A DNA stretch of 64,000 bases. Source: an uncultured Alphaproteobacteria bacterium. Lineage in GTDB: Bacteria > Pseudomonadota > Alphaproteobacteria > Micropepsales > Micropepsaceae. The stretch is taken from the NCBI GenBank assembly GCA_902826695.1, contig CADEFU010000017.1:1-64000 (forward strand), written 5' to 3'. Positions 8,918 to 56,217 of the stretch are shown here, one piece after another (position 1 is the first letter of the stretch; every line of letters begins with the position of its first letter). Position numbers and translations under genes: made by a program. The notes under the pieces are model-generated. The model was not told the DNA's origin. It did no database searches and saw only the letters and a program-made list of their open reading frames with translations.

Positions 8918-9340
8918 TTAGCGGCGCCGCAAAGCGAGCGCCAAGAACACGATTGCAAGCACGACCGCCGCGGGGCTTGCGTAGTTTTCCGGCGGCCGAT
9001 GCATCGCCTCCGCTCCTTTGCCGAGCCACGCGTCGTAACTCATCAATCCGCGCGAGACGATGATGGCAACAAGCCCGAGCGGCACCAACGTCCGGTACCG
9101 CACGCCGATCACGAGCAGCAACAACGCCATCGCGATCTGCAGCGCCCCAAACCAAGCAAAGATGCGCACGATCGTGGGGCCATGCACCGAAAGGTCGATG
9201 CCGGCGATCACGCCCGCGCCGCCGTCCGGCAGGAAAAAATGGATGCAGCCCGGCACAAGCTCGAGCAGCGCGGCCAGTATCAAGAACCACGCAGCAGCGG
9301 GCGCACCGTGGTAGTCGCTATTCGTGCTCGGCGGAAACAT
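8918..9340 (-). CDS. Small integral membrane protein
   Basis: 140 residues with four predicted membrane helices (about 17-35, 55-78, 80-98, 120-137). The ATG at 9340 has a textbook Shine-Dalgarno (GGAGGTG 3 bases upstream), which decides it over the longer frame reaching 9583 inside the neighbouring gene. No family recognised. It follows the gene ending at 9352 by 11 bases, so the two are probably co-transcribed under the palindrome at 10004. Confidence 0.75.
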   Translation of the reverse strand: MFPPSTNSDYHGAPAAAWFLILAALLELVPGCIHFFLPDGGAGVIAGIDLSVHGPTIVRIFAWFGALQIAMALLLLVIGVRYRTLVPLGLVAIIVSRGLMSYDAWLGKGAEAMHRPPENYASPAAVVLAIVFLALALRRR

Positions 9341-9351
9341 CGCCACCTCCC

Positions 9352-9996
9352 CTACTGCAAAGCCAAGATCGCAAGCTGCGCGAGCGCCGCCAAAAGTGCG
9401 AGCACAAGCGCGACCCAAACTTTCGGGCTCAAAAGCGCAAGCACCATGGGCTGCGTCGGGAACGACAGCGTGACCGGTACGGCCGCGAACTTGAATTCGT
9501 GCCCGCCGCCGAAGCGCGGATCCGAGGCAAGATCGGCCATGTCGCGCCGGCTTCGATAGCGCATGTAGCCGACGACGCTCCAACCGGGATCGGCTTCGAC
9601 GCCCCAGCTGTCGACATAGCCGCCGGCCTTGCGCGCGACCATCGCGGGATGCCCGCCGCGCGCGATGAGCGCGGGCAGGAACGCCTTCGTGTAGTCCTGC
9701 ATGACGGCGCGCGCCGAGCGCATGGCGCCCGTTTTCGGATCCTTCACCTCGCCGGGCGCAAGGCGCACCAGGTTCAGCATGAAGAACTCGCGCCCGTCGT
9801 CGCCCTCCAGGAACGTCCGCAGCACGCCGTCGGCGGTGCTGTCGGCGCTGTGCGGGTTCACGGCGCGAATGCGCGCGACGTAGCCATCAATCTCGTCCGC
9901 CCGCACGCGGCCGCGCCAATTGAAATACCACGCCGCGAACGCGGCGTACGCCGCCGCCGCCACCGCCCAAACCCACGCGCCCGCCATGACTTTCAT
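9352..9996 (-). CDS. Membrane-anchored protein with dimeric alpha-beta barrel (DUF1330/EthD-like) domain
   Basis: 214 residues: N-terminal membrane helix (about 8-26), a soluble domain (about 55-175) with FFMLNLVRLAPG, ALIARGGHPAM and VVGYMRYRSRRDMADL segments, typical of antibiotic-monooxygenase/DUF1330-type dimeric alpha-beta barrels, then a C-terminal membrane helix (about 188-210). Such domains bind small ligands or act as cofactor-free monooxygenases. The precise role is unknown. An alternative start at 9987 (MAGAW) is possible. A perfect inverted repeat immediately upstream suggests control by a dedicated repressor. Confidence 0.7.
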   Translation of the reverse strand: MKVMAGAWVWAVAAAAYAAFAAWYFNWRGRVRADEIDGYVARIRAVNPHSADSTADGVLRTFLEGDDGREFFMLNLVRLAPGEVKDPKTGAMRSARAVMQDYTKAFLPALIARGGHPAMVARKAGGYVDSWGVEADPGWSVVGYMRYRSRRDMADLASDPRFGGGHEFKFAAVPVTLSFPTQPMVLALLSPKVWVALVLALLAALAQLAILALQ

Positions 9997-10003
9997 CCAT
10001 ATT

Positions 10004-10022
10004 GTGACACAAGAAGTGTCAC
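10004..10022. promoter_or_regulatory. Perfect palindrome GTGACAC-N5-GTGTCAC, probable operator
   Basis: Seven-base arms with a 5-base centre. It begins 8 bases upstream of the ATG at 9996 and abuts TATAGT (on the minus strand) that could be its -10 element. The position over the start region fits repression of the 9996-8918 gene pair. Alternatively an mRNA 5' hairpin, since a 5-base loop is possible. Confidence 0.55.
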
Positions 10023-10062
10023 TATATGGCGAAGCCGCCCGAGGCTCAAGCAGGCTCGCTTA

Positions 10063-10280
10063 CGTGAGCGCGTCCGCAGCCTTGCCGTTCGGCACGAACA
10101 AAATCGCGTCGAAAGCCCAATCGATCGCCGTGTTTCTTCCGGCAAGTGCTTCCACCGCGATGGCCGGTCCCTCCAAGTCTTGAGAGCGAACAGCGTCATC
10201 GACTTCGCCTCGACTTGGGGCGCGAGGTCGAGGGGCGGCTTTGCCCTCGCTCAGCGCAAACTCCAAAACGCTGATGCCGC
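10063..10280 (-). pseudogene. Decayed 3' end of a paralogue of the EreA/ChaN-like gene at 28493-29716
   Basis: In one frame the minus strand reads MTLFALKTWRDRPSRWKHLP, in another IDWAFDAILFVPNGKAADAL, and further upstream LEFALSEGK. The intact protein has MTLFDLKPWKDRPGRWKHLP, IWAFDAVLFVPNGKPAAPL and FELAVSEGK in that order. Frameshifts separate the pieces and about 100 bases are missing between the SEGK segment and the rest. Identity is about 70% by eye, so this is probably an old paralogue rather than a recent copy. Confidence 0.75.
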
Positions 10281-10282
10281 GA

Positions 10283-10300
10283 CAAGTAATCGTGTCCCCA
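10283..10300 (+). repeat. GTAATCGTGTC element, copy 3
   Basis: GCGACAAGTAATCGTGTCCCC spans about 10281-10301. It sits exactly between the remnants of two different genes, as copy 2 sits at a fragment junction. Confidence 0.65.
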
Positions 10301-10301
10301 C

Positions 10302-10400
10302 ACACCAAGCGCCAGCCTTTGGCCGCATGTCGCCATCCGTGTGTCCAAGCTGCGTGAACAGCGGCAGGATTCGCCGCGCCGCAATCGTGACGGCCGTCAC
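10302..10400 (-). pseudogene. Decayed 3' fragment of a TIM-barrel-like gene (paralogue of 12802-13896)
   Basis: The minus strand reads ILPLFTQLGHTDGDMRPKAG, against ILPLFTQIGLTDSDLRPKPA in the intact protein, followed by a damaged GVWDG segment. It is more diverged than the copy at 8639-8876. No open gene remains. Confidence 0.7.
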
Positions 10401-10559
10401 AATCGAATTTCTCCCCGCACGCGAATTCTCCGAACATCTAAGAAACAAAGCGCGGGTACCACGCATACGGGAGCCGTTCGCGAAAGATACAATTGCTTCT
10501 GTCGTTAACTGCATTGGACTTAGCCTCGGCGCCTGCCAATCCAACGAGACGTCGCGACT

Positions 10560-12791
10560 ATGCTCTTCGACACCAACGAGCTGAGAACCACTGCAAGTCC
10601 CGTCGCCGCAGTCCGTCTTGCCTATCGAACCTTTAGAGCAGAACTGTTTCCGCGGACCGACGCGGAGCTGTTTCTGACCCTGCTCAAGGCCCGCATGGTC
10701 GCCATGAATCTGGCGCCTGGCATGTACGCGCTGCCCGTGATGGTCGCGGGCCTTGCTGCCCTCCACCTCGCCTGGTCGCCCTGGATTCCGGTTGCCGTCT
10801 GGGCCGGCGTGGTGGGCGCGGTTTGGATGGCGTGGCAGCCTTTCGCCAACGCGTTCGATCGCGACATCCCGCTCGCCAAAGCACGGCACGTCCTCATGGC
10901 CTGGAGTGTTCGGGTGCTCGCCTTCATCGCCGTCTTCGGCGCGCAAGCCGTGTTGTTTTGGGTCCCCGGCGATCCGACGAGCCACATCGCTATCGTCATG
11001 GTCCTGCTCGCGGCGTCGGTCGCGGCGGCGATGTCGGCCGCGTGGCTTCCGCTGAGCCTCGTCCAGATCGTGTGGTATGTCGGCCTGATCGTGACGCTGC
11101 TCGCCGCCGAAGGCAGCCCCACCTACCTGACGCTGGCGGGTCTCGCGCTCGTTTATGCGCTCTATCTCGCGGGCACCGTCATAAGCCTGCACAGCTACAG
11201 CGTACGGCTTCTTACGCTCGAAACGCAGAAGGGTGCCGAGACGCGCGCCCGCGAAGCGGCCGAGCAGGCGAACCGCGCGAAGTCCGAATTCCTCGCCATG
11301 ATGAGCCATGAGATCCGCACGCCGATGAACGGCGTTCTGGGAATGGTCGGCCTTTTGCTCGACAGCGATCTGAAGGGCGAGCATCGCAAGCACGCCGAAT
11401 CCATTCGCAAGTCGGGCGAAGATCTGATGCGGATCATCAACGATGTGCTCGACTTCTCGAAGCTTGAGGCGGGCAAGATCTCGATGGAGAACGCCGCTTT
11501 CGACTTGCCGGCGCTGCTTGCCTATGCGGCGGAAATCTGCGAGCCGCGCGCGAAAGCAAAGGGGCTCGTCTTGCAAGCCGACCTCGCCCGCGACCTGCCG
11601 CAGCACGTAACGGCGGACTCGGGCCGGTTGCGCCAAGTCGTACTGAACCTCCTCGCCAACGCCAGCAAATTCACCGAACAGGGGCGCATTTGCCTGCGCG
11701 CATCGAGCATACCTTTAGGACCCGACCGAGCGGTCCTGCGAGTCGACGTCACGGACACCGGCATCGGCATTGCCGCCGAGCAGCTCGCCAACCTCTTCCA
11801 GAGCTTCAGCCAAGCCGACGCCTCGATCTCGCGCCGCTTCGGCGGCACCGGCTTGGGTCTTGCGATCTGCCAGAAGATCGTGACGGCCATGGGCGGCCAA
11901 ATCGGGGTCGAGAGCAAACTCGGCTCGGGCTCGACCTTCTGGTTCGAAGTCCCGCTGCAACTCGCGCACGCCAACGACGTCGCCAAGCGTGCGCGCGCCG
12001 CCACTGCCGCAGAGTTCGACGCTGCCTTGGCCAAGATTCGCGGACGCCAACGCCCGCTCCGCGTTCTGCTCGTCGAAGACAACGCAACCAACCAGGTCGT
12101 CGCCACCGCGGTCTTGGCCAAATTCGATTTGAAGCCGGACCTGGCCGGCAACGGCCTGGAAGCGATCGAAGCCGTCCGCAAGCGCGACTACGACATCGTC
12201 CTCATGGATGTTCATATGCCCGAACTCGACGGGCTTGAGGCGACGCGTGCGATCCGCTCGATGCCGGAACCGAAACGCGCTGTCCCTATCGTGGCACTGA
12301 CGGCCAATGCGCTTGAAAGCGACATAGAGGATTGCCGCGCCGCCGGCATGAACGGCCACGTCGCCAAACCCTTCCAACGCGAAGAATTGATCGTCGCAAT
12401 GGCGAACGCTCTAGAAAGAGGCTCCACTTTGAAGCTCCCAAGCGAGCTCATCGACACAGATCGCCTCGCTCGGTTTCGCGACGAGAATGGCGAGGACACG
12501 TTCCGCCTATTGATCGACACCTATCTATCGGATGGCGCTCAAAAGCTGTCGCGCCTGTGCGAGCTCCTCCACGACGGTCAAACGGGCGAGGAGGCTATCC
12601 GGCTCGCCCATTCGCTCAAGAGTTCGAGCGCTATGGTCGGCGCGCCCGCACTGTCCGGCACGGCCGCAGACATCGAAAGACGGCTTCGGACGAATGAAGC
12701 CGTGACAAGCGCCGCTGCTGACGAGATGCAGCGGCTATTCACGGCCTTCCGCGACGAGCTCGCACGGCACAACTACGTCACGGCGGCGTGA
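10560..12791 (+). CDS. Orphan hybrid sensor histidine kinase with receiver and HPt domains
   Basis: 743 residues. About six membrane helices (about 55-215) form the sensor region with no periplasmic domain of note. They are followed by a HisKA domain with His250 in [11 protein letters not shown], a HATPase domain (N-box [21 protein letters not shown]; about 350-470), a receiver domain with Asp550 in VLMDVHMPE (about 500-615), and a C-terminal HPt domain with His684 in AHSLKSSS. This is a complete His-Asp-His relay of the BarA/ArcB architecture. It needs a further response regulator that is not encoded nearby. The ATG at 10560 has a weak GAGACG upstream. Its stop faces the stop of the next gene across 10 bases. 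Confidence 0.92.
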
Positions 12792-12793
12792 CG
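12776..12793. terminator. Hairpin between convergent genes
   Basis: CGTCAC and GTGACG pair around GGCGGC at the end of the kinase gene, immediately before the convergent stop at 12802. There is no T-tract, so it is only a weak terminator candidate. Confidence 0.25.
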
Positions 12794-12801
12794 CCCCGGC
12801 C

Positions 12802-13896
12802 TTACCCCAACCGCCGCGCAAACAACCCATCCCACACGCCAAGCGCGGGCTTCGGCCGAAGGTCGCTGTCCGTCAGCCCAATCTGCGTGAACAGCGGCAG
12901 GATCTCCGGCACCGCAATCGGGAAATTCGTGAGGTCGAGATCCGCATAGAGCGTCTGGATCACGCCGCGCGCGCGAATGCTGTCGAGCAGCTCGGCGTGG
13001 CGCGCGATGTAGCGGGCCTGCAGCGCGGGTGTGGAGTTGACCGGACCGACGCTAGCGCTGGTCCAGCCGCCTTCGACCACCATCGCGGGCATGCGGCGCA
13101 CGCCCGCAAGGCGCGTGTAATAGTCGCCCGGCATAGCCTCGGGCTCGGCGTAACCGAAATACGGATAGCTCGACAGGCCAAGCATCCGCGCGAACGGAAA
13201 GTCCTTGATGTCGGCAGCGATGCCCTGAAAGCGCGTTTTGTTGACAAGCACGCCCCACGCCGCCTCGACCTGCACGCTGATCATCGGCGGCGTGCGCAAA
13301 CCCGCTGCCGCAAGATCGGCCGCCGTCGCATTGGCGGCGGCAACCACAGCGGCATAGAGCTTGGGCGGCGCCGCTTGGCGAACGAGATTCGTTTCCGAGG
13401 CGAGCCCGACATAGTCGGGCTTAAACCGCCGCACGAACGCGCGCACATAGGCGCTGTACACGCGCTGCACGTCGACCTCCGCGATCGACCGGCCGAGCGC
13501 GCGCAATTGCGGCGCCTCCTCGCCACGCGACAGACCGTCGTTGAGATCGCCCATAAAGCCGATGCGCAATCCTCGCGCCCGGCAATAGGCGATGAGCTTT
13601 TCCTTGTCGCGCGTGAGAATGTCGTCCGCGCTCATGCCGCCGAGCAGATCCTTCCACGGCAATTCCTCGTGGATGTGCAGACACTCCGCGCGCTGGCTGA
13701 AGCTGTTGATGCCCGCGATAACAGCCTCGACCGTGAAACGCCCGCCGGTCGGAAAGAACCCCATCCGCCAGCTGCGCGTAGCGCAAGCGCCGCGAAGGCT
13801 GGCGCCGGGCGCGCAAAACGGCACCGCGGCAGCAAGCCCAAGAACATCCCGTCGATTCAGCGGGGGCAGCCCCCGGCGCGCGCGATCATCGTCCAT
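12802..13896 (-). CDS. Exported TIM-barrel-like protein (possible glycoside hydrolase fold), intact source of duplicated fragments
   Basis: 364 residues. The N-terminus MDDDRARRGLPPLNRRDVLG.. carries an RR motif and hydrophobic core like a Tat signal. The rest has the alternating pattern of a TIM barrel with segments IGFMGDLNDGL, PDYVGLASETNL (a Glu at the end of a strand, as in clan GH-A acid/base residues), LGLSSYPYFGY and MVVEGGWTSAS (second Glu). The fold and the paired glutamates suggest a glycosidase, but I cannot name a family. Its 3' end is copied at 8639-8876, and a more distant relative's end lies at 10302-10400. Confidence 0.7.
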   Translation of the reverse strand: MDDDRARRGLPPLNRRDVLGLAAAVPFCAPGASLRGACATRSWRMGFFPTGGRFTVEAVIAGINSFSQRAECLHIHEELPWKDLLGGMSADDILTRDKEKLIAYCRARGLRIGFMGDLNDGLSRGEEAPQLRALGRSIAEVDVQRVYSAYVRAFVRRFKPDYVGLASETNLVRQAAPPKLYAAVVAAANATAADLAAAGLRTPPMISVQVEAAWGVLVNKTRFQGIAADIKDFPFARMLGLSSYPYFGYAEPEAMPGDYYTRLAGVRRMPAMVVEGGWTSASVGPVNSTPALQARYIARHAELLDSIRARGVIQTLYADLDLTNFPIAVPEILPLFTQIGLTDSDLRPKPALGVWDGLFARRLG

Positions 13897-13959
13897 GCAC
13901 CGATCTTGGCGCCCCCAACGGCCGCGTCAACTCACCAGTGCGAGAGTAGGCTCAAATTG

Positions 13960-14733
13960 CTAACTAGCACTGTCGCCGCGTCGTGCGCTGAGCGCCACCG
14001 GTAGCTCGGCTGCAGAGCGCGGCGCCGGCACGACGCCGACGCTCTCCCCGTTCGCCCGCCGAACGAAGCGAGACAACTCGGACACGTTGTGAATAACAAA
14101 CTCACGGCGCGTTTGAGTGATCACCCCGCGGCGCGCGAGATCCCGCAGCTCGCGTGTGACCGCCTCGCGATGCGTGCCGATCCTGTTGGCAAGCTCGTGA
14201 TGCGTGGGACCTTCGACAATTCGCGCCTCGTTCCCATTGACGCCGGCCATAAGGCCAAGCCGCAAAAGTTCACAGTGCAACCGGCTGCGCACGTCCAGTG
14301 CGCTGAGCTCGAAAATGCGCTCAGTCAGGCTTCGCACCTGCGCGGCCAGCCGCTGCACCAACCAAATTGCGGCAGCCGGCGAGGTCTCCAAGAGGCGTCG
14401 GAAGTCTGCGCCGTCGATCTGAAGCAGCTGTCCGCTCGTCAACGCGACGACATTTGCGGTTCTGCGCCCGCCGTCGAGTGCCGCCAGCTCCCCGAACAAA
14501 TCGCCCGCCCCAAGGGTGCGGATCGAAACTTCTTTCCCGTCCTTAGAGTAGATGAGGACTTGAAACTGTCCCGAGACGACGAAAAACACGTCCGCGGCGC
14601 GCGCGCCTTGCCCCACGATGATATGCCCCTTGCGCACGCGAACTTCATTCGCAAGGCGTTCGAATTGCTTCTTCTGTTCTGCACCGAGGCGCGAAACGAA
14701 CTCAAAAGGATGCACCAGCAACATCGAAATCAA
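13960..14733 (-). CDS. Crp/Fnr family transcriptional regulator
   Basis: 257 residues. Cyclic-nucleotide-binding-type beta-roll (about 20-135, with GAGDLFGELAALDGGRRTANV where the cAMP pocket lies), a dimerisation helix (about 125-160) and a winged helix (about 165-235) with recognition helix region HHELANRIGTHREAVTRELR. The N-terminus lacks the FNR cysteine cluster, so it is not an FNR-type oxygen sensor. The AATCM-like pocket cannot be assigned to a ligand. It is transcribed in the same direction as the Atu-like operon, but a 226-base gap separates them. Confidence 0.88.
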   Translation of the reverse strand: MISMLLVHPFEFVSRLGAEQKKQFERLANEVRVRKGHIIVGQGARAADVFFVVSGQFQVLIYSKDGKEVSIRTLGAGDLFGELAALDGGRRTANVVALTSGQLLQIDGADFRRLLETSPAAAIWLVQRLAAQVRSLTERIFELSALDVRSRLHCELLRLGLMAGVNGNEARIVEGPTHHELANRIGTHREAVTRELRDLARRGVITQTRREFVIHNVSELSRFVRRANGESVGVVPAPRSAAELPVALSARRGDSAS

Positions 14734-14959
14734 CTGTCAGGCGAACACCGCCAACAACGGTATCAAGCGGTCGACGTGCGGTTCAAGGCGGTGCCAACGC
14801 ACCTCTGTCTGCTTTCGCCACATTAGCGTGACACCTCCGGGCAACACCCACCCCCTTTTGAACGTTGATAACCCTTTGCTGCCATCGCATCGAGCGGCGC
14901 CGCTTCGGCGACTTCCGGCGACACAATAAGAGCGCGCAGAATATGAACCGGCCTACCGG

Positions 14960-16045
14960 TCAGACCCAGCCCTGCAGACGGGCAGCCTCTTCGCGCACGC
15001 GTTCCGGGCTGCCGAGAAGCTGCCGGTTGGCGCCAATGCGCTTGAACCAGTAGTGAAGCCCGACCAGGTCCGTGAAGCCCATGCCGCCGTGCACTTCCGT
15101 GGAAGTGCGCGCGACGAATGTACCGACATCCGCGAGAAGGGATTTGGCGAGGCAGACCATCACATCCGCATCTTCCATGTCCTCGTCGATCGCATGCGCG
15201 GCGTGCCACACGAGCGCGCGGGCGGGTTCGATGTTGGCAGCCATCTCCGCGCACAGGTGCTTGATCGCTTGAAAACTGCCGATCACGCGGTTGAACTGTT
15301 TGCGTTCGAGCGCATAGGCCACGGCCTTATCGAGCATGGCCTGCGCCGCGCCCAGCGTATCGGCGGCCAACAGAAGGCGTCCGGCACGGATCATCCGGTC
15401 CACGCCCGCACCGGGCGCGTTCTCGCCACTCATCTTGGTTGAGGCGACGCCGTTGAACGTCAGCTCTGCGAAGTCGCGGGTGCGATCGATCGTGCCGAGA
15501 GCGGCGCGTGCCAGCCCCGGCGCCCCGGCCGCAACGATGTGCAGATGCCCTTGGTCGTCAGCGACCATGATGTGCGTCGCCTGCGCGGTCTCCAGCGCAA
15601 ACAAGCTCTTTCCCGTGAGGCCATCGCGCGGGGCCGAAACGCCGGCCCCGTGACGCGCACCGACGCGCTCGGCGATGGCAATGCCCATGCGCACCTCGCC
15701 GGATGCAATCCTGGGCAGCCACTCGGCTTGCTGGGCCTCGGTGCCGGCCTTTCGGATGCCGATGCTGGCCATCGCATTGGCCATGAAGGCGCCAGGCGAC
15801 ACCGTGGAGCCTAGCGCTTCCTGCACAAGCACGGCATCGAGAAATCCGAGCCCAAGCCCGCCATGCTGCGGCGGCACGAGAATCTGCGCCGCGCCCAGTT
15901 CCGTCAGACCCTCCGAGATCGCACGCGCCGCAGCCGCGTCGCCATCCGCGACCTTCCTGACCTGATCGAGGGGCGATGCCGTCTTGAGGAACCCTTTGAC
16001 GGAGTCCTGCAACATTCGCTGATCGTCCGAGAGCGCAAATTCCAT
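14960..16045 (-). CDS. Acyl-CoA dehydrogenase, second of a pair (beta-type)
   Basis: 361-residue acyl-CoA dehydrogenase. N-terminal helical domain begins MEFALSDDQRML. The C-terminal domain has EVHGGMGFTDLVGLHYWFKR. It is shorter than the usual 380-400 residues and lacks the GG-T-x-IQ-N-I segment that its neighbour has. Pairs with these complementary signatures occur as alpha2-beta2 heterotetramers acting on bulky acyl-CoAs, such as sterol side chains. It lies 14 bases after the first dehydrogenase gene. It is the last gene of the operon, with no terminator seen. Confidence 0.88.
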   Translation of the reverse strand: MEFALSDDQRMLQDSVKGFLKTASPLDQVRKVADGDAAAARAISEGLTELGAAQILVPPQHGGLGLGFLDAVLVQEALGSTVSPGAFMANAMASIGIRKAGTEAQQAEWLPRIASGEVRMGIAIAERVGARHGAGVSAPRDGLTGKSLFALETAQATHIMVADDQGHLHIVAAGAPGLARAALGTIDRTRDFAELTFNGVASTKMSGENAPGAGVDRMIRAGRLLLAADTLGAAQAMLDKAVAYALERKQFNRVIGSFQAIKHLCAEMAANIEPARALVWHAAHAIDEDMEDADVMVCLAKSLLADVGTFVARTSTEVHGGMGFTDLVGLHYWFKRIGANRQLLGSPERVREEAARLQGWV

Positions 16046-16059
16046 GTGTAGCGTTTCCC

Positions 16060-17256
16060 TTATGCCGAGCCGGCGCGCGGCTCGCGCGGCATCCCGAGGC
16101 CATGTTCCGAAATGATGTTCTTCTGGATCTGCGCGGTACCCCCGCCGATGATCAGACCCAGGTCATACATGTAGCGCGACTGCCACTCGCCGAAGTCGCG
16201 CAGGTAAGGCGAGCCCTCACCGTAGAGCAGCCCGAACTCGCCCATGGCATCGATCGCCAATCGCGCAAGCTCATGGTTGAGCTCGCAGCCCTGAAGCTTC
16301 ACCACCAGCCCGGCGAGTCCCGCGCTTTCACCCTTGATGCGACTGGTCGTAACCCGCAGCCCATTGGCCTGCATCGCATAGACGCGAGCCTGCAACGCCA
16401 CCAAGCGATCCCTGAAGACGGGATTGTCGATCAGCCTCTCGCCGTTGATCGTCTCGGTCTTCATCAGTTCGGCAATCGCCAGCAACCGCGTCTTGGCCGC
16501 ATTGGGATCGCCCAGCATGCCGCGCTCATGCGTCAGTGTTGCATTCGCGACCTGCCAGCCCTGCCCAGGCGCGCCGACGATCTGGCTGCGTGGGACACGC
16601 ACGTCCGTGAAGAAGACTTCATTGAAGTTCGCGGTCATCGTCATGTCGACGAGCGGGCGCACCTCGATACCGGGCGTCGCCATCGAGAAGATGAGGTAGG
16701 AGATCCCGTGGTGTTTCTTCGCGTCGGGTTCAGTGCGCACGAGGCAGAAGATCATGTCGGCCTGCTTGGCCGTCGAAGTCCAAATCTTTTGGCCGTTGAT
16801 GACATAGTCGTCGCCGTCGATATGCGCCTTCGTCGACAGACTGGCGAGATCCGAGCCGGAACCTGGTTCGGAATAGCCCTGGCACCAGATGATTTCGCCG
16901 TGCAGGGTTGGCCGGATGTAGGTCTGCTTCTGCGCCTCGGTGCCCAGTTCCAGCAACGTTGGCACCAGCATCGAGACGCCCTGGTTGGTGGCACCTTGCG
17001 GCAGGCCCGTGCGCGCGAACTCTTCGGCAATGATACGCGACTTGAGAACATCGGGTGCCGCACCGTATCCGCCATACGCCTTAGGGATCGTACGAGCCGT
17101 CAGGCCGTTCTCAATCAGCCACTTCTGCCACGCCAAGCGCTTGGGGTGTTTCAGGCCACGGTCGTCCTGCGAAGGCGCGTTGTGGCGGTTCGATTCGAGG
17201 AGTCTTGCGACCTCAGCTCGAAAGGCCTGGTACTCTGCATCCAGTGTAAGCTTCAT
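16060..17256 (-). CDS. Acyl-CoA dehydrogenase, first of a pair (alpha-type)
   Basis: 398 residues, full length, beginning MKLTLDAEYQAFRAEVARLL. It contains WCQGYSEPGSGSDLASL (FAD/substrate loop), QKIWTSTAKQADM and the C-terminal IGGGTAQIQKNIISEHGLG, where a glycine replaces the glutamate of MCAD-type enzymes, as in FadE26-like subunits. The ATG at 17256 overlaps the previous stop as ATGA, deciding the start over a longer open frame. In the Atu pathway a dehydrogenase (AtuD) oxidises citronellyl-CoA. This one could take that step or a later one. Confidence 0.9.
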   Translation of the reverse strand: MKLTLDAEYQAFRAEVARLLESNRHNAPSQDDRGLKHPKRLAWQKWLIENGLTARTIPKAYGGYGAAPDVLKSRIIAEEFARTGLPQGATNQGVSMLVPTLLELGTEAQKQTYIRPTLHGEIIWCQGYSEPGSGSDLASLSTKAHIDGDDYVINGQKIWTSTAKQADMIFCLVRTEPDAKKHHGISYLIFSMATPGIEVRPLVDMTMTANFNEVFFTDVRVPRSQIVGAPGQGWQVANATLTHERGMLGDPNAAKTRLLAIAELMKTETINGERLIDNPVFRDRLVALQARVYAMQANGLRVTTSRIKGESAGLAGLVVKLQGCELNHELARLAIDAMGEFGLLYGEGSPYLRDFGEWQSRYMYDLGLIIGGGTAQIQKNIISEHGLGMPREPRAGSA

Positions 17257-53273: not shown

Positions 53274-53633
53274 CTACTCCGCGCTCAACGTCCGTTTGAC
53301 CTTGACCACCAAGACCTGTGCGTTGTTCCGGAGCAAGATCAGCTCCGCCACGCTGTCCTTCGGCCCCTCTAGCCCGCGCGCGAAGAAATAGTATGGCGCA
53401 GGCGAGTTCGAATACGTGCCGTCGATCGCCAAAACCTGATCCCCAGCCTTCACCCCAGCCAACGCCGCAGGTCCGCCCTTTTCCACCTGCGAAATTTTCG
53501 GATAGGGCGTGGCGTCGATCATCTTCACGCCGATCCCATAAAGATCGTACGGCGGCGGCACATCGGCGGACGCCTGGAACACACCGGCAAAGGAAGCCGC
53601 GGCAAACGCCACCAGGAACGCAAACAAACGCAT
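53274..53633 (-). CDS. Secreted PDZ-domain protein
   Basis: 119 residues. Signal peptide MRLFAFLVAFAAASFAGVFQASA, then a single PDZ-like domain (about 35-110: GIGVKMIDATPYPKISQVEKGGPAALAGVKAGDQVLAIDG). No protease domain. Possibly an adaptor. The GGAGAG ribosome-binding site has correct spacing for ATG 53633 and is too close to ATG 53639, which decides the start. It is 5 bases before the nitronate monooxygenase gene on the same strand. Confidence 0.75.
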   Translation of the reverse strand: MRLFAFLVAFAAASFAGVFQASADVPPPYDLYGIGVKMIDATPYPKISQVEKGGPAALAGVKAGDQVLAIDGTYSNSPAPYYFFARGLEGPKDSVAELILLRNNAQVLVVKVKRTLSAE

Positions 53634-53742
53634 CGTCATCTCTCTCCAAAGTCGAAATTGCGCGCGGCACAATACCCGATCGCCACCTATTTGATACCCG
53701 CCCAGCATTGGCACCGCCCCGGCGCACGTGCAATCTTCGGGC

Positions 53743-53967
53743 ATGGGGAACATCGAGAGCACCGCCGCCGCCCTGAACCTCGTCGCGCTTTACGCAGCGG
53801 CAGGGGTGATCTTCGCGATCCTCTTCCTGCTCTTCGGCATCACCCGCATCGACAACGGCGCAAAAGGCGCAGGCCTTGGTTTCCGCCTGCTCATCCTCCC
53901 CGGCCTCATCGCGCTCTGGCCGCTCATGCTGATCCGCTGGCTGTCCGGCGGACAACCTCACGGCTGA
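53743..53967 (+). CDS. Small membrane protein, first gene of Rieske operon
   Basis: 74 residues with two hydrophobic helices (about 8-30 and 48-68), separated by GITRIDNGAKGAGL. The ATG at 53743 (MGNIESTAAAL) follows TTCGGGC. No known family. Located 4 bases before the 38-residue gene. Confidence 0.6.
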   Translation: MGNIESTAAALNLVALYAAAGVIFAILFLLFGITRIDNGAKGAGLGFRLLILPGLIALWPLMLIRWLSGGQPHG

Positions 53968-53971
53968 TCAC

Positions 53972-54088
53972 ATGCGCCTCTGGCAACGCCGCACGCACCC
54001 TTGGATCTGGCTCATCGTCGCCGCAGCCGTGGCCTTCGTGCTGATCGCGCTCGTGCAAGATCAGCCCGGCCTCCTGAGCCTGAGATAG
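53972..54088 (+). CDS. 38-residue single-span membrane peptide
   Basis: ATG 53972 to TAG 54088 gives MRLWQRRTHPWIWLIVAAAV.. ending in GLLSLR. The basic N-terminus and one membrane helix (about 10-30) give an inside-N topology. It fills the gap between its neighbours exactly (4 bases on each side), in the same direction. This suggests a genuine small subunit. Confidence 0.6.
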   Translation: MRLWQRRTHPWIWLIVAAAVAFVLIALVQDQPGLLSLR

Positions 54089-54092
54089 AGCG

Positions 54093-55139
54093 ATGGCCGC
54101 GACCTACAAACCCGTCCTCTGGAACGCGCACAAGCGCATATACGACACGATACTGATCGCCGGGATCGTGGCCTATCTCGCGATCTTCATCGCCGTCGGC
54201 TACGCGACCGCCGACAGCGCCAACACCTCGCTCGAAATACTGACGATCAGCGCGCTCGGCGCCTGCGCGTTCTTCATGCTGCACATCGTGCTCGCCATCG
54301 GCCCGCTCGCGCGTCTCTCGCCGAAGTTCCTGCCGCTGCTCTACAACCGGCGCCACTTGGGTGTGGCCCTCTTCGTCGTCGCCGCGAGCCACGCCATCTT
54401 TGGTACGATCTGGTACCACGGCTATGGCGTGATCAATCCGATCGTCTCACTTTTCGTCTCGAACCCGCGCTACGACGCCATCGGCGCGTTTCCATTCGAA
54501 AGCCTCGGCGTCATCGCGCTCGTGATCCTGTTCCTCATGGCCGCGACCAGCCACGACTTCTGGCTGAACAACCTCTCGCCAGCTGTCTGGAAGACGCTGC
54601 ACATGCTGATCTACCCGGCCTATGGCAGCGTGGTTCTGCATGTGTTGCTCGGCGCCGCTAGCGGCCACGGCGGCAGTCCGCTCTACGTCTGGGCGGTCGC
54701 CGCGGGCTTTGCGATCATCGTCGGCCTGCACATCACGGCGGGCATCGCGCAAAGCGGCCGCGACGCCGCCACACGACGAAACCTTGATGGCGACTGGATC
54801 GACGCGGGCACGGTCGCCGACATCCCGGAAAAGCGCGCCCGCCGCATCACGACGCCGTCGGGCCACCAAATCGCGATCTTCAAATATGACGGCAAAGTCG
54901 CCGCGATCTCGAACGTCTGCGCCCACCAGATGGGCCCACTCGCCGAAGGCTGCATCAAGGACGGCCTCGTCACCTGCCCGTGGCACGGCTGGCAGTACGA
55001 TCCCGCAACGGGCCGCTCGCCCGCGCCCTACACCGAAAAAGTGGAAACCTTCGCCGTGCGCGTGAAAGACGGTCGCGTCTTCGTCGCCGCAAAACCGAAC
55101 CCGAAAGGCGCGGCCGCAACCCCGGCCGCGATCGGCTAA
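54093..55139 (+). CDS. Rieske iron-sulfur protein fused to ferric-reductase-like membrane domain
   Basis: 348 residues. About six membrane helices (about 20-225) with a histidine pattern (NRRHLGVALFVVAASHAIFG, KTLHMLIYPAYGSVVLHVLL) like ferric reductase/MsrQ-type heme b proteins. A C-terminal Rieske domain follows with Cys276-x-His278 (CAHQMGP) and Cys295-x2-His298 (CPWHGW). It probably transfers electrons between a membrane heme and a 2Fe-2S centre. The partner is unknown. Confidence 0.85.
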   Translation: MAATYKPVLWNAHKRIYDTILIAGIVAYLAIFIAVGYATADSANTSLEILTISALGACAFFMLHIVLAIGPLARLSPKFLPLLYNRRHLGVALFVVAASHAIFGTIWYHGYGVINPIVSLFVSNPRYDAIGAFPFESLGVIALVILFLMAATSHDFWLNNLSPAVWKTLHMLIYPAYGSVVLHVLLGAASGHGGSPLYVWAVAAGFAIIVGLHITAGIAQSGRDAATRRNLDGDWIDAGTVADIPEKRARRITTPSGHQIAIFKYDGKVAAISNVCAHQMGPLAEGCIKDGLVTCPWHGWQYDPATGRSPAPYTEKVETFAVRVKDGRVFVAAKPNPKGAAATPAAIG

Positions 55140-55142
55140 ACC

Positions 55143-55886
55143 ATGGCGGACAACAACGACAATTTCTACGTCGGCTACTTGGCCCTCCCGAAGGGGCTTC
55201 GCGGCACCATCGCGGCCCTCGTCATCGTCCTCGTCGCACTCATCGCGTTCGACGCCTGGCTCGTGGCAACGCTTCAACCCGAAGCGGGCGACGGGCACTG
55301 GGCCGACACGCCAAGCGAATTCGTCGGCACGCTGACGCGCGATCCCTACCCGATGCTGCGCGTCGACAAGGGCGGCGTGACAAAAACCTACGTGATCGTC
55401 TCCGACGAAAAGCGCGGCGCAGAGACGGCCCTCGCAAAATTCCCTGACGGCGCCTCAATCAAACTTACAGGATTTGAGGTCGAACGCGCCGCCGTCGGCA
55501 TGATCCAGCTCGCAGCAACCGAAATGACCGTAGCCGACGCCCCGTCCGTCGCCGACGCGCCTCGCGAGATCCATGGCCGCGTCACGGTGACGGGCGAAAT
55601 CGTCGATTCCAAATGTTGGCTGGGCGTCATGCGCCCCGGCGACGGCCATATCCACAAAGCCTGCGCCAGCGTCTGCATCCTGGGCGGCATACCCCCGATG
55701 TTCGTGACCCGCACCGGGGGCGCCCCATCCGTGATGCTGCTGACCCTGGCCGACGGCCGCGCCGTGCCGCCGGAGCGCATCGTCGAATACGCCGCTGATT
55801 CCGTTCAACTGTCGGGAATCGTGGAAAAGCGGGGCGATCTCACTGTCTTTAAGGCCGATCTCGACAGCCTCAGACGCACCGAATAA
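55143..55886 (+). CDS. Membrane-anchored protein with conserved cysteine motif
   Basis: 247 residues. One membrane helix (about 22-42), then an extracytoplasmic part with two OB-like strands-rich segments. The motif DSKCWLGVMRPG..HKACASVCILGGIPP (about 155-185) has three cysteines and a histidine and is conserved in related uncharacterised proteins. It might bind metal. 3 bases after the Rieske gene. Confidence 0.7.
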   Translation: MADNNDNFYVGYLALPKGLRGTIAALVIVLVALIAFDAWLVATLQPEAGDGHWADTPSEFVGTLTRDPYPMLRVDKGGVTKTYVIVSDEKRGAETALAKFPDGASIKLTGFEVERAAVGMIQLAATEMTVADAPSVADAPREIHGRVTVTGEIVDSKCWLGVMRPGDGHIHKACASVCILGGIPPMFVTRTGGAPSVMLLTLADGRAVPPERIVEYAADSVQLSGIVEKRGDLTVFKADLDSLRRTE

Positions 55887-55896
55887 AACGCACCCC

Positions 55897-56217
55897 ATGG
55901 TGCGTCATTTTCTTTCTCTCCTAGTCATGGGGCTCGCGCTCGCGGCCTGCGGCGATTCCGGCAAGCCGAAGCAATCGGCTGGCGACTCAAAGCCCGTTCG
56001 AATGGCCTGCCGCACGATCGACGAGGCCGCAATGAAGGCGCAGGACGTCACGCGCAAACTCGCCGAAGGCCGCAAAGCCGGCACGCTCACCCAAGACGAA
56101 TACATCGCCTACACCAATGCGGTGAGCGACGGTTTGAGCGCCTGGGCCGAACGCCAAGACCTTCGCGCCTATTGCGCCGCGCTTCAACGCGTCGTGACCG
56201 ACGCCAGCCTGCAATAG
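55897..56217 (+). CDS. Small lipoprotein of unknown function
   Basis: 106 residues. Lipobox LAAC at Cys18 after a hydrophobic signal (MVRHFLSLLVMGLALAAC). The mature helical domain is rich in charged residues. Lies 10 bases after the preceding gene, so it likely belongs to the same operon. Family not recognised. Confidence 0.7.
   Translation: MVRHFLSLLVMGLALAACGDSGKPKQSAGDSKPVRMACRTIDEAAMKAQDVTRKLAEGRKAGTLTQDEYIAYTNAVSDGLSAWAERQDLRAYCAALQRVVTDASLQ

What the first reader, a model, noticed from the sequence alone, without database searches (positions are those of the whole stretch)
53743..56217. Membrane electron-transfer operon with two tiny membrane proteins
Five tightly packed genes: a 74-residue and a 38-residue membrane peptide, a Rieske protein fused to a ferric-reductase-like domain, a membrane-anchored cysteine-motif protein and a lipoprotein. 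No such complex is familiar to me. The minimal spacing suggests a multi-subunit complex with small subunits usually missed by annotation.
Basis: partly seen in the sequence, partly recalled or inferred. Interest (0 to 1): 0.6.

Follow-up and report, generated by a model that had tools for sequence, protein, structure and literature searches.

The report
Four-gene membrane electron conduit, widespread
Four neighbouring genes, two of them tiny and with no known family, stay together in many distant groups of bacteria and probably build a membrane device that carries electrons from inside the cell to the outer face of its inner membrane.

Summary
Four form a conserved unit: p74 (two membrane helices), p38 (one), FRR (an MsrQ/ferric-reductase-like heme protein with a cytosolic Rieske domain) and CysM (a membrane-anchored periplasmic protein with an invariant Cys/His/Met motif). 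Among the 80 best FRR relatives from named genomes of many phyla, p74 was found in 78, CysM in 78 and p38 in 76 (0 of 80 on the reversed strand). The 38-residue frame is under purifying selection. It has an R-x2-H motif whose His was present in 76 of 76 named loci, exists elsewhere as a 120-241-residue subunit, and is fused to p74 in at least two separate lineages. The fifth gene, the lipoprotein, was found only in the window's genus and moves away in two species, so I leave it out. Most likely this is an inner-membrane electron conduit of the ferric-reductase superfamily, with a Rieske domain instead of a flavin/NADPH domain, delivering electrons to CysM. Donor and final acceptor are unknown. 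The Rieske fusion was catalogued in 2013; I found no description of the four-gene system.

The parts
53743..53967 (+). p74: two-helix membrane protein of 74 aa, core subunit, no Pfam/NCBIfam family above cut-off
   Evidence: homologue in 78 of 80 named loci and in 15 credible of 16 hits among 289 class genomes
53972..54088 (+). p38: single-helix membrane peptide of 38 aa with an N-terminal R-x2-H motif (R6, H9); short form of a subunit that is 120-241 aa elsewhere
   Evidence: purifying selection; profile hits 76 of 80 loci, 0 of 80 reversed; motif His in 76 of 76
54093..55139 (+). FRR: six-helix ferric-reductase/MsrQ-like heme domain with a C-terminal, predicted cytosolic Rieske [2Fe-2S] domain
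   Evidence: invariant H88, H100, H154, H170, H183 (81 of 81) and C276, H278, C295, H298 (80 of 80 with letters); alignment to E. coli MsrQ
54354..54643 (+). heme-binding stretch of FRR (about H88 to H183 of the protein)
54795..55052 (+). Rieske [2Fe-2S] domain of FRR, ferredoxin type
55143..55886 (+). CysM: one N-terminal membrane helix, then two OB-like barrels; Cys/His/Met motif in the second
   Evidence: homologue in 78 of 80 named loci
55605..55694 (+). CysM motif D-x-K-C-x2-G-x-M-x-P-G-x4-H-x2-C-A-x2-C-x2-G-G-x-P (residues 155-184), proposed metal or redox site
   Evidence: D, K, C158, M163, H171 and C174 in 64 of 64 rows with letters, C178 in 63 of 64
55888..55905 (+). terminator-like stem between CysM and the lipoprotein gene (not above chance in number)
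55897..56217 (+). small lipoprotein of 106 aa; neighbour, probably not a subunit
53274..53639 (-). single-PDZ-domain secreted protein, divergent neighbour, probably not a subunit

Best explanation
p74, p38, FRR and CysM are subunits of one inner-membrane electron-transfer unit. [quoted passage not shown] Its Rieske domain, on the cytosolic side, takes the place that the FAD/NADPH module has in NADPH oxidases: it accepts electrons one at a time from a cytosolic donor. They pass through the heme or hemes held by H100/H183 (periplasmic side), and possibly H88/H170 (cytosolic side), to the periplasmic face. There the second OB-like domain of CysM, with its Cys-His-Cys-Cys(-Met) motif, is the first periplasmic acceptor, as a metal or redox site, and hands electrons to an unknown final acceptor. 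p74 and p38 are small membrane subunits that hold the cytochrome and CysM together, much as p22phox or CydX do in other oxidases (recalled analogies). In some lineages p38 carries a periplasmic beta-sandwich of its own. SHOWN: gene set, order, selection on p38, conserved ligands, fusions. INFERRED: a physical complex, the side of the Rieske domain (positive-inside rule), heme number, direction of flow, metal in CysM. UNKNOWN: the donor in this organism and the final acceptor.
For: Gene set: of 80 named FRR loci, p74 in 78 and CysM in 78; the two CysM misses are cut at or near locus ends. p38 in 76 of 80, reversed strand 0 of 80; 46 of the 50 loci not used as seeds were hit. Searching from p74 instead of FRR gives the same unit: FRR in 16 of 16 alphaproteobacterial loci, CysM in 15 of 16, p38 in 11 of 16; by reading, the other 5 have p38 fused to p74. 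p74-p38 fusions lie in two separate clades of the FRR tree. One locus (L137, a MAG, at a contig end) has FRR and CysM in one 601-aa frame. Ligands: five membrane His and all four Rieske ligands invariant. FRR aligns with E. coli MsrQ (hhalign E 5e-7), H100/H170/H183 falling on MsrQ H91/H151/H164. Loop charges put both FRR termini, hence the Rieske domain, in the cytosol. CysM motif invariant. Cytosolic Rieske enzymes recur as neighbours: Rieske + Glu_synthase in 26 of 100 loci, a TPP enzyme (Rieske-fused in the representative) in 21 of 100.
Against: No experiment. The Rieske + Glu_synthase enzyme was not found in the window's genus (0 of 11 genomes, E <= 1e-60), so the window's donor is different or unknown. 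FRR has Arg (R86, matching the YedZ/STEAP signature described in PMC3591440) where NADPH oxidases have the first canonical His, so a second heme is uncertain. CysM has no fold match at E <= 0.001 and no solved relative by sequence, so 'metal site' rests on conservation alone. L080 has p74, p38 and FRR but no CysM. In L101, L148 and L161 p74 lies 2-3 kb from FRR. The R-x2-H motif of p38 is lost or shifted in some divergent fused forms (L073, L077).
Confidence: 0.6

Rival explanations
1. Electrons run inward: CysM collects electrons from a periplasmic donor (metal, thiol or reduced substrate) and FRR feeds them through its Rieske domain to cytosolic Rieske enzymes (Glu_synthase-like FMN enzyme, TPP enzyme), for assimilation or redox balance.
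For: Cytosolic Rieske enzymes recur next to the unit, and glutamate-synthase-type enzymes consume electrons (established knowledge of the family).
Against: Characterised FRD proteins move electrons outward (PMC3591440, passages; PMC5676040, passages). The Glu_synthase-type enzyme is not in the window's genus.
Confidence: 0.2
2. A metal (iron or copper) reductase or metal-handling unit: FRR reduces metal ions at the periplasmic face, and CysM and the long p38 domain bind the metal.
For: The FRD superfamily includes ferric and cupric reductases (PMC3591440). The conserved Cys/His/Met set of CysM suits copper or iron. The long p38 model has weak matches to periplasmic copper proteins (PmoD, FetP, CrdA, P19; Z 5.4-6.6). 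Imelysin-type genes lie upstream in one relative (read by eye).
Against: Those Z scores are below the level the tool calls trustworthy. No metal-uptake family recurs among the neighbour families seen in 4 or more of 100 loci, as read from representatives.
Confidence: 0.25
3. A periplasmic repair or stress system like MsrPQ: FRR supplies electrons through CysM for reductive repair of oxidised periplasmic proteins.
For: FRR's closest characterised relative found here is MsrQ. YHS, DoxX-like, TANGO2 and sigma-factor genes recur nearby. A Rhizobium plasmid copy lies near a sigma-70 family factor and an NrsF-family gene.
Against: No MsrP-like gene was noticed beside the unit in the loci read; I did not search for it specifically. 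The neighbours are not constant.
Confidence: 0.25
4. An ordinary collection of packed genes with no shared function.
For: Dense packing is common in bacterial genomes; the lipoprotein is indeed only a neighbour.
Against: The same four genes stay together across many phyla and fuse.
Confidence: 0.03

Closest known systems
MsrQ (YedZ) of the MsrPQ methionine sulfoxide reductase system
   Same: FRD-type membrane heme protein. H100/H170/H183 and the RR pair of FRR align with E. coli MsrQ H91/H151/H164 and its RR pair.
   Different: FRR has a fused Rieske domain, extra invariant His (H88, H154), partners p74, p38 and CysM, and scores 32 bits against the MsrQ model cut-off of 130.
NADPH oxidases / bacterial NOX (SpNOX) and ferric reductases
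   Same: Same membrane domain family (Ferric_reduct, above cut-off); proposed outward electron transfer from a cytosolic redox domain.
   Different: A Rieske domain instead of FAD/NADPH domains; Arg in place of the first canonical heme His by the YedZ/STEAP criterion.
Rieske-containing FRD architecture 'M4' of Zhang et al. 2013 (PMC3591440)
   Same: A bacterial FRD architecture with a Rieske domain, listed in the legend of Figure 3.
   Different: The sections and passages I read do not mention the partner genes. M4 is also listed with an FMN domain, which the window protein lacks; the supplementary data were not seen.
Small subunits of membrane oxidases (CydX of cytochrome bd, p22phox of NOX2)
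   Same: Tiny or small membrane proteins beside a membrane heme protein (analogy, recalled).
   Different: No sequence relation tested or claimed.
DUF5818 (PF19135)
   Same: 2 of 61 CysM members match weakly (best E 0.003).
   Different: The window CysM does not match at E <= 0.01 (E 0.074, below cut-off).

Membership tests
FRD superfamily (PF01794 Ferric_reduct) | membrane domain above Pfam cut-off | tested here: met
   46.7 bits, cut-off 28, residues 56-177
FRD superfamily (PF01794 Ferric_reduct) | heme-ligand His in TM3 and TM5 | tested here: met
   H100, H170 and H183 invariant in 81 of 81 and aligned with MsrQ His
FRD superfamily (PF01794 Ferric_reduct) | heme bound | not testable with these tools
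   needs purified protein
MsrPQ | MsrQ model cut-off (NF003831) | tested here: not met
   32 bits against a cut-off of 130
MsrPQ | msrP gene beside it | not tested
   none noticed in the loci read; no specific search was made
NOX / FRE long form | FAD- and NADPH-binding domains on the same chain | tested here: not met
   only Rieske domains found after the membrane domain
NOX / FRE long form | four canonical heme His | tested here: inconclusive
   three align; R86 stands 14 residues before H100, where NOX2 has His-101, with an extra invariant H88 two residues on
cytochrome bc1 / b6f complex | cytochrome b subunit plus bc1-type Rieske protein | tested here: not met
   no cytochrome b family match in the operon; best Rieske relatives are dioxygenase ferredoxins
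TatA/B/E (for p74) | Pfam cut-off | tested here: not met
   13.8 bits against 21
DM13 (for the long p38 domain) | profile similarity to DM13 | tested here: inconclusive
   hhalign probability 0.4%, small DM13 set of 4
four-gene conduit described here | p74, p38, FRR and CysM in this order on one strand | tested here: met
   window; named loci

The most novel reading that the evidence does not exclude
A so far undescribed class of transmembrane electron-export complex spread over many bacterial phyla. A Rieske domain replaces the flavin module of NADPH oxidases and collects electrons from several cytosolic Rieske-bearing enzymes; an invariant His at the membrane end of a 38-residue subunit takes part in heme or cofactor binding; and CysM is a new kind of periplasmic metal redox domain.
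Probability: 0.25. Interest if true: 0.85.

Novelty: new variant of a known kind. Interest (0 to 1): 0.6.

Why it matters
The unit was found in Alphaproteobacteria, Chromatiaceae, Cyanobacteria, Planctomycetota, Verrucomicrobiota, Acidobacteriota, Bacteroidota and several smaller phyla. Three of its four proteins match no Pfam or NCBIfam family above cut-off, so genome annotation shows only a 'Rieske domain protein' beside hypotheticals. If it works as proposed, it adds a third way of feeding an FRD-type membrane cytochrome, after fused FAD/NADPH domains and separate flavin reductases, and gives a clean case of a conserved protein under 40 residues. The R-x2-H motif of p38 and the Cys/His motif of CysM are point-testable.

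Tried and rejected
Lipoprotein as subunit: rejected, because in G001 and G003 it lies about 1.8 kb beyond CysM beside the PDZ gene, and tblastn found no credible relative in L043-L046. DM13 kinship of the long p38 domain, suggested by eye: not supported. Chance frames: rejected. TatA kinship of p74: below cut-off.

Fold searches. CysM: no Foldseek match at E <= 0.001; best VIA Z 7.3 to NlpE, then SSB/PriB-type OB folds, mostly for the first domain. Long p38 of L117: no match at E <= 0.001, best Z 6.6. Neither excludes a known fold. The TM part of FRR alone found no solved structure by sequence. FRR found nothing in phages.

Conserved donor: the Rieske + Glu_synthase enzyme was tested and is not found in the window's genus. 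Crude picking of p38 by score failed for many loci and was replaced by a profile.

Papers: nine searches. PMC3591440: passages and section 10 in full. PMC5676040 and PMC10715153: passages only. Others: listings only.

Full report
THE OBSERVATION. The five frames are present at the stated coordinates on the + strand, separated by 4, 4, 3 and 10 bases. p74 has two predicted membrane spans, p38 one, FRR six, CysM one at its N-terminus, and the fifth gene a lipoprotein-type leader (the second hydrophobic window of CysM falls on its Cys region, which the model shows as a helix and strand). FRR carries Ferric_reduct and Rieske domains, both above Pfam cut-offs. p74, p38, CysM and the lipoprotein match no Pfam or NCBIfam family above cut-off.

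IS THE 38-RESIDUE FRAME REAL? Within the genus, orthologous frames at the same place show pN 0.15-0.29 against pS 0.51-0.85 in 6 of 6 comparisons. Read in shifted frames, the sign reversed in 7 of 8 tests; the exception is one shifted frame against G005. Across phyla, I built a profile from 34 peptides (30 of them from the 80 named loci) and searched the kilobase before FRR. It hit 76 of 80 loci on the coding strand and 0 of 80 on the reversed strand. Of the 50 loci not used as seeds, 46 were hit. The misses are L101, L148, L151 and L161; in three of these p74 is displaced by 2-3 kb. The His of the N-terminal R-x2-H motif was present in 76 of 76 loci and the Arg in 75 of 76. The subunit comes in sizes: 28-72 residues in 35 loci, 84-103 in 3, 120-241 in 38. 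So the window's p38 is the small version of a larger subunit. AlphaFold2 gives the long version (L117) a helix followed by a beta-sandwich (mean pLDDT 86).

THE FOUR-GENE UNIT. They come from Alphaproteobacteria, Chromatiaceae, Cyanobacteria, Planctomycetota, Verrucomicrobiota, Kiritimatiellota, Acidobacteriota, Bacteroidota, Balneolota, Rhodothermota, Calditrichota, Krumholzibacteriota and candidate division KSB1. p74 was found on the same strand in 78 of 80 (misses L124, L134; displaced in L101, L148, L161) and CysM in 78 of 80 (misses L088 and L150, both at or near locus ends). The converse search, seeded with p74, hit 16 of 289 class genomes (one, G294, is a marginal hit inside a large frame and I discount it) and 7 of 299 phylum genomes, all of the same class. 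Of the 16 p74-seeded loci outside the genus examined (L068-L083), FRR was present in 16, CysM in 15 (not L080) and p38 in 11, with 0 of 16 on the reversed strand. Reading the other five, L073, L077, L081, L082 and L083, shows a diverged p38 fused to the C-terminus of p74; L075 and L076 also read as fused. Fused forms also occur in L130 and L140. On a FastTree tree of 93 FRR rows the fused rows need two changes; my short/long/fused labels in that tree were set by hand, and 6 rows had no label. In L137 FRR and CysM share one frame at a contig end; a single MAG case may be an assembly artefact. Near the window, an FRR orthologue (full length or split over contigs) is in 11 of 41 genomes searched: 8 of 11 genus genomes, 2 further family members and G032.

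WHAT IS NOT PART OF IT. The lipoprotein has relatives in five of ten orthologue loci, all of the genus. It lies directly after CysM in three and about 1.8 kb away, beside the PDZ gene, in G001 and G003. A terminator-like stem lies between CysM and the lipoprotein, but the number of such stems is not above chance.

HOW IT PROBABLY WORKS. FRR aligns with E. coli MsrQ (hhalign E 5e-7); H100, H170 and H183 fall on MsrQ H91, H151 and H164, and R86-R87 on the MsrQ RR pair. Zhang et al. (PMC3591440, passages) describe Arg in place of the first canonical His as the YedZ/STEAP signature; R86, 14 residues before H100 as in NOX2, fits that. FRR has further invariant His, H88 and H154 (81 of 81), and H213 (78 of 81). 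One periplasm-side heme (H100/H183) is therefore likely and a second possible. Loop charges (3, 4 and 17 basic residues on the N-terminal, second and C-terminal segments, none on the first and third outer loops; the remaining two loops are neutral) place both ends in the cytosol, so the Rieske domain would sit where NADPH oxidases carry their FAD/NADPH module. Its closest solved relatives by sequence are dioxygenase ferredoxins. CysM would be periplasmic; its second OB-like domain holds Cys158, Met163, His171, Cys174 and Cys178, present in 64 of 64 aligned rows with letters except Cys178 (63 of 64) (65 rows aligned, 13 of the 78 left out because my start-site pattern did not fit them). I infer a metal or redox site there. 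Direction of flow is inferred from the superfamily, not shown.

DONORS AND ACCEPTORS. Over 100 loci (80 named, 19 from unnamed relatives, and the window), the most frequent neighbours of interest were a Rieske + Glu_synthase protein (26 loci), a TPP enzyme whose representative carries a Rieske domain (21), SDR (19), YHS (18), a TANGO2-type protein (12), a DoxX-like protein (8) and DM13 (4) (clusters by BLAST, families assigned on one representative each). The recurrence of cytosolic Rieske enzymes suggests a shared Rieske circuit. The Glu_synthase type was not found in the window's genus (0 of 11), so the donor here is open.

WHAT IS KNOWN. PMC3591440 lists a Rieske-bearing FRD architecture (M4) in a figure legend. 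My nine paper searches of the held open-access library found no account of the four-gene unit or of p74, p38 or CysM; subscription papers and preprints were not searched. Two Rhizobium plasmid records carry the unit with FRR named 'Rieske 2Fe-2S domain-containing protein' and the other three 'hypothetical protein'. I therefore call it a new variant of a known kind: an FRD-type electron conduit with a different cytosolic input and three unnamed partners.

Noticed in passing
L081, L082, L083, L073 (around FRR): Operon-like order in several Alphaproteobacteria: Rieske + Glu_synthase protein, fused p74-p38, FRR, CysM, a membrane protein of about 90 aa (frame seen in L073, L081, L082), Rieske + TPP enzyme. 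Three different Rieske proteins in one gene string.
   Followed up: partly
L043 (G018), 9116-16383: Upstream of the unit on the same strand: proteins read by eye as imelysin-like (two), a diheme oxidoreductase, a multicopper oxidase and a porin-like protein; possibly iron-linked.
   Followed up: no
L137:3038-4840: FRR and CysM in one 601-aa frame running to the contig end; a natural fusion or an assembly artefact.
   Followed up: no
L080:6257-8361: p74, p38 and FRR without CysM; a separate frame with a Rieske-like motif follows FRR instead.
   Followed up: no
L044 (G007): A genus member whose FRR (49% identical) groups with Hyphomonadaceae sequences rather than with the genus, suggesting replacement or transfer.
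   Followed up: partly
L166:10191-13385 (Rhizobium plasmid NZ_CP007050.1): Beside the unit: TetR regulator, sigma-70 family factor, DUF1109, chlorite dismutase family and NrsF family genes; possible stress regulation.
   Followed up: no
window 55888-55905: Perfect short stem followed by T-rich sequence spans the start codon of the lipoprotein gene.
   Followed up: no
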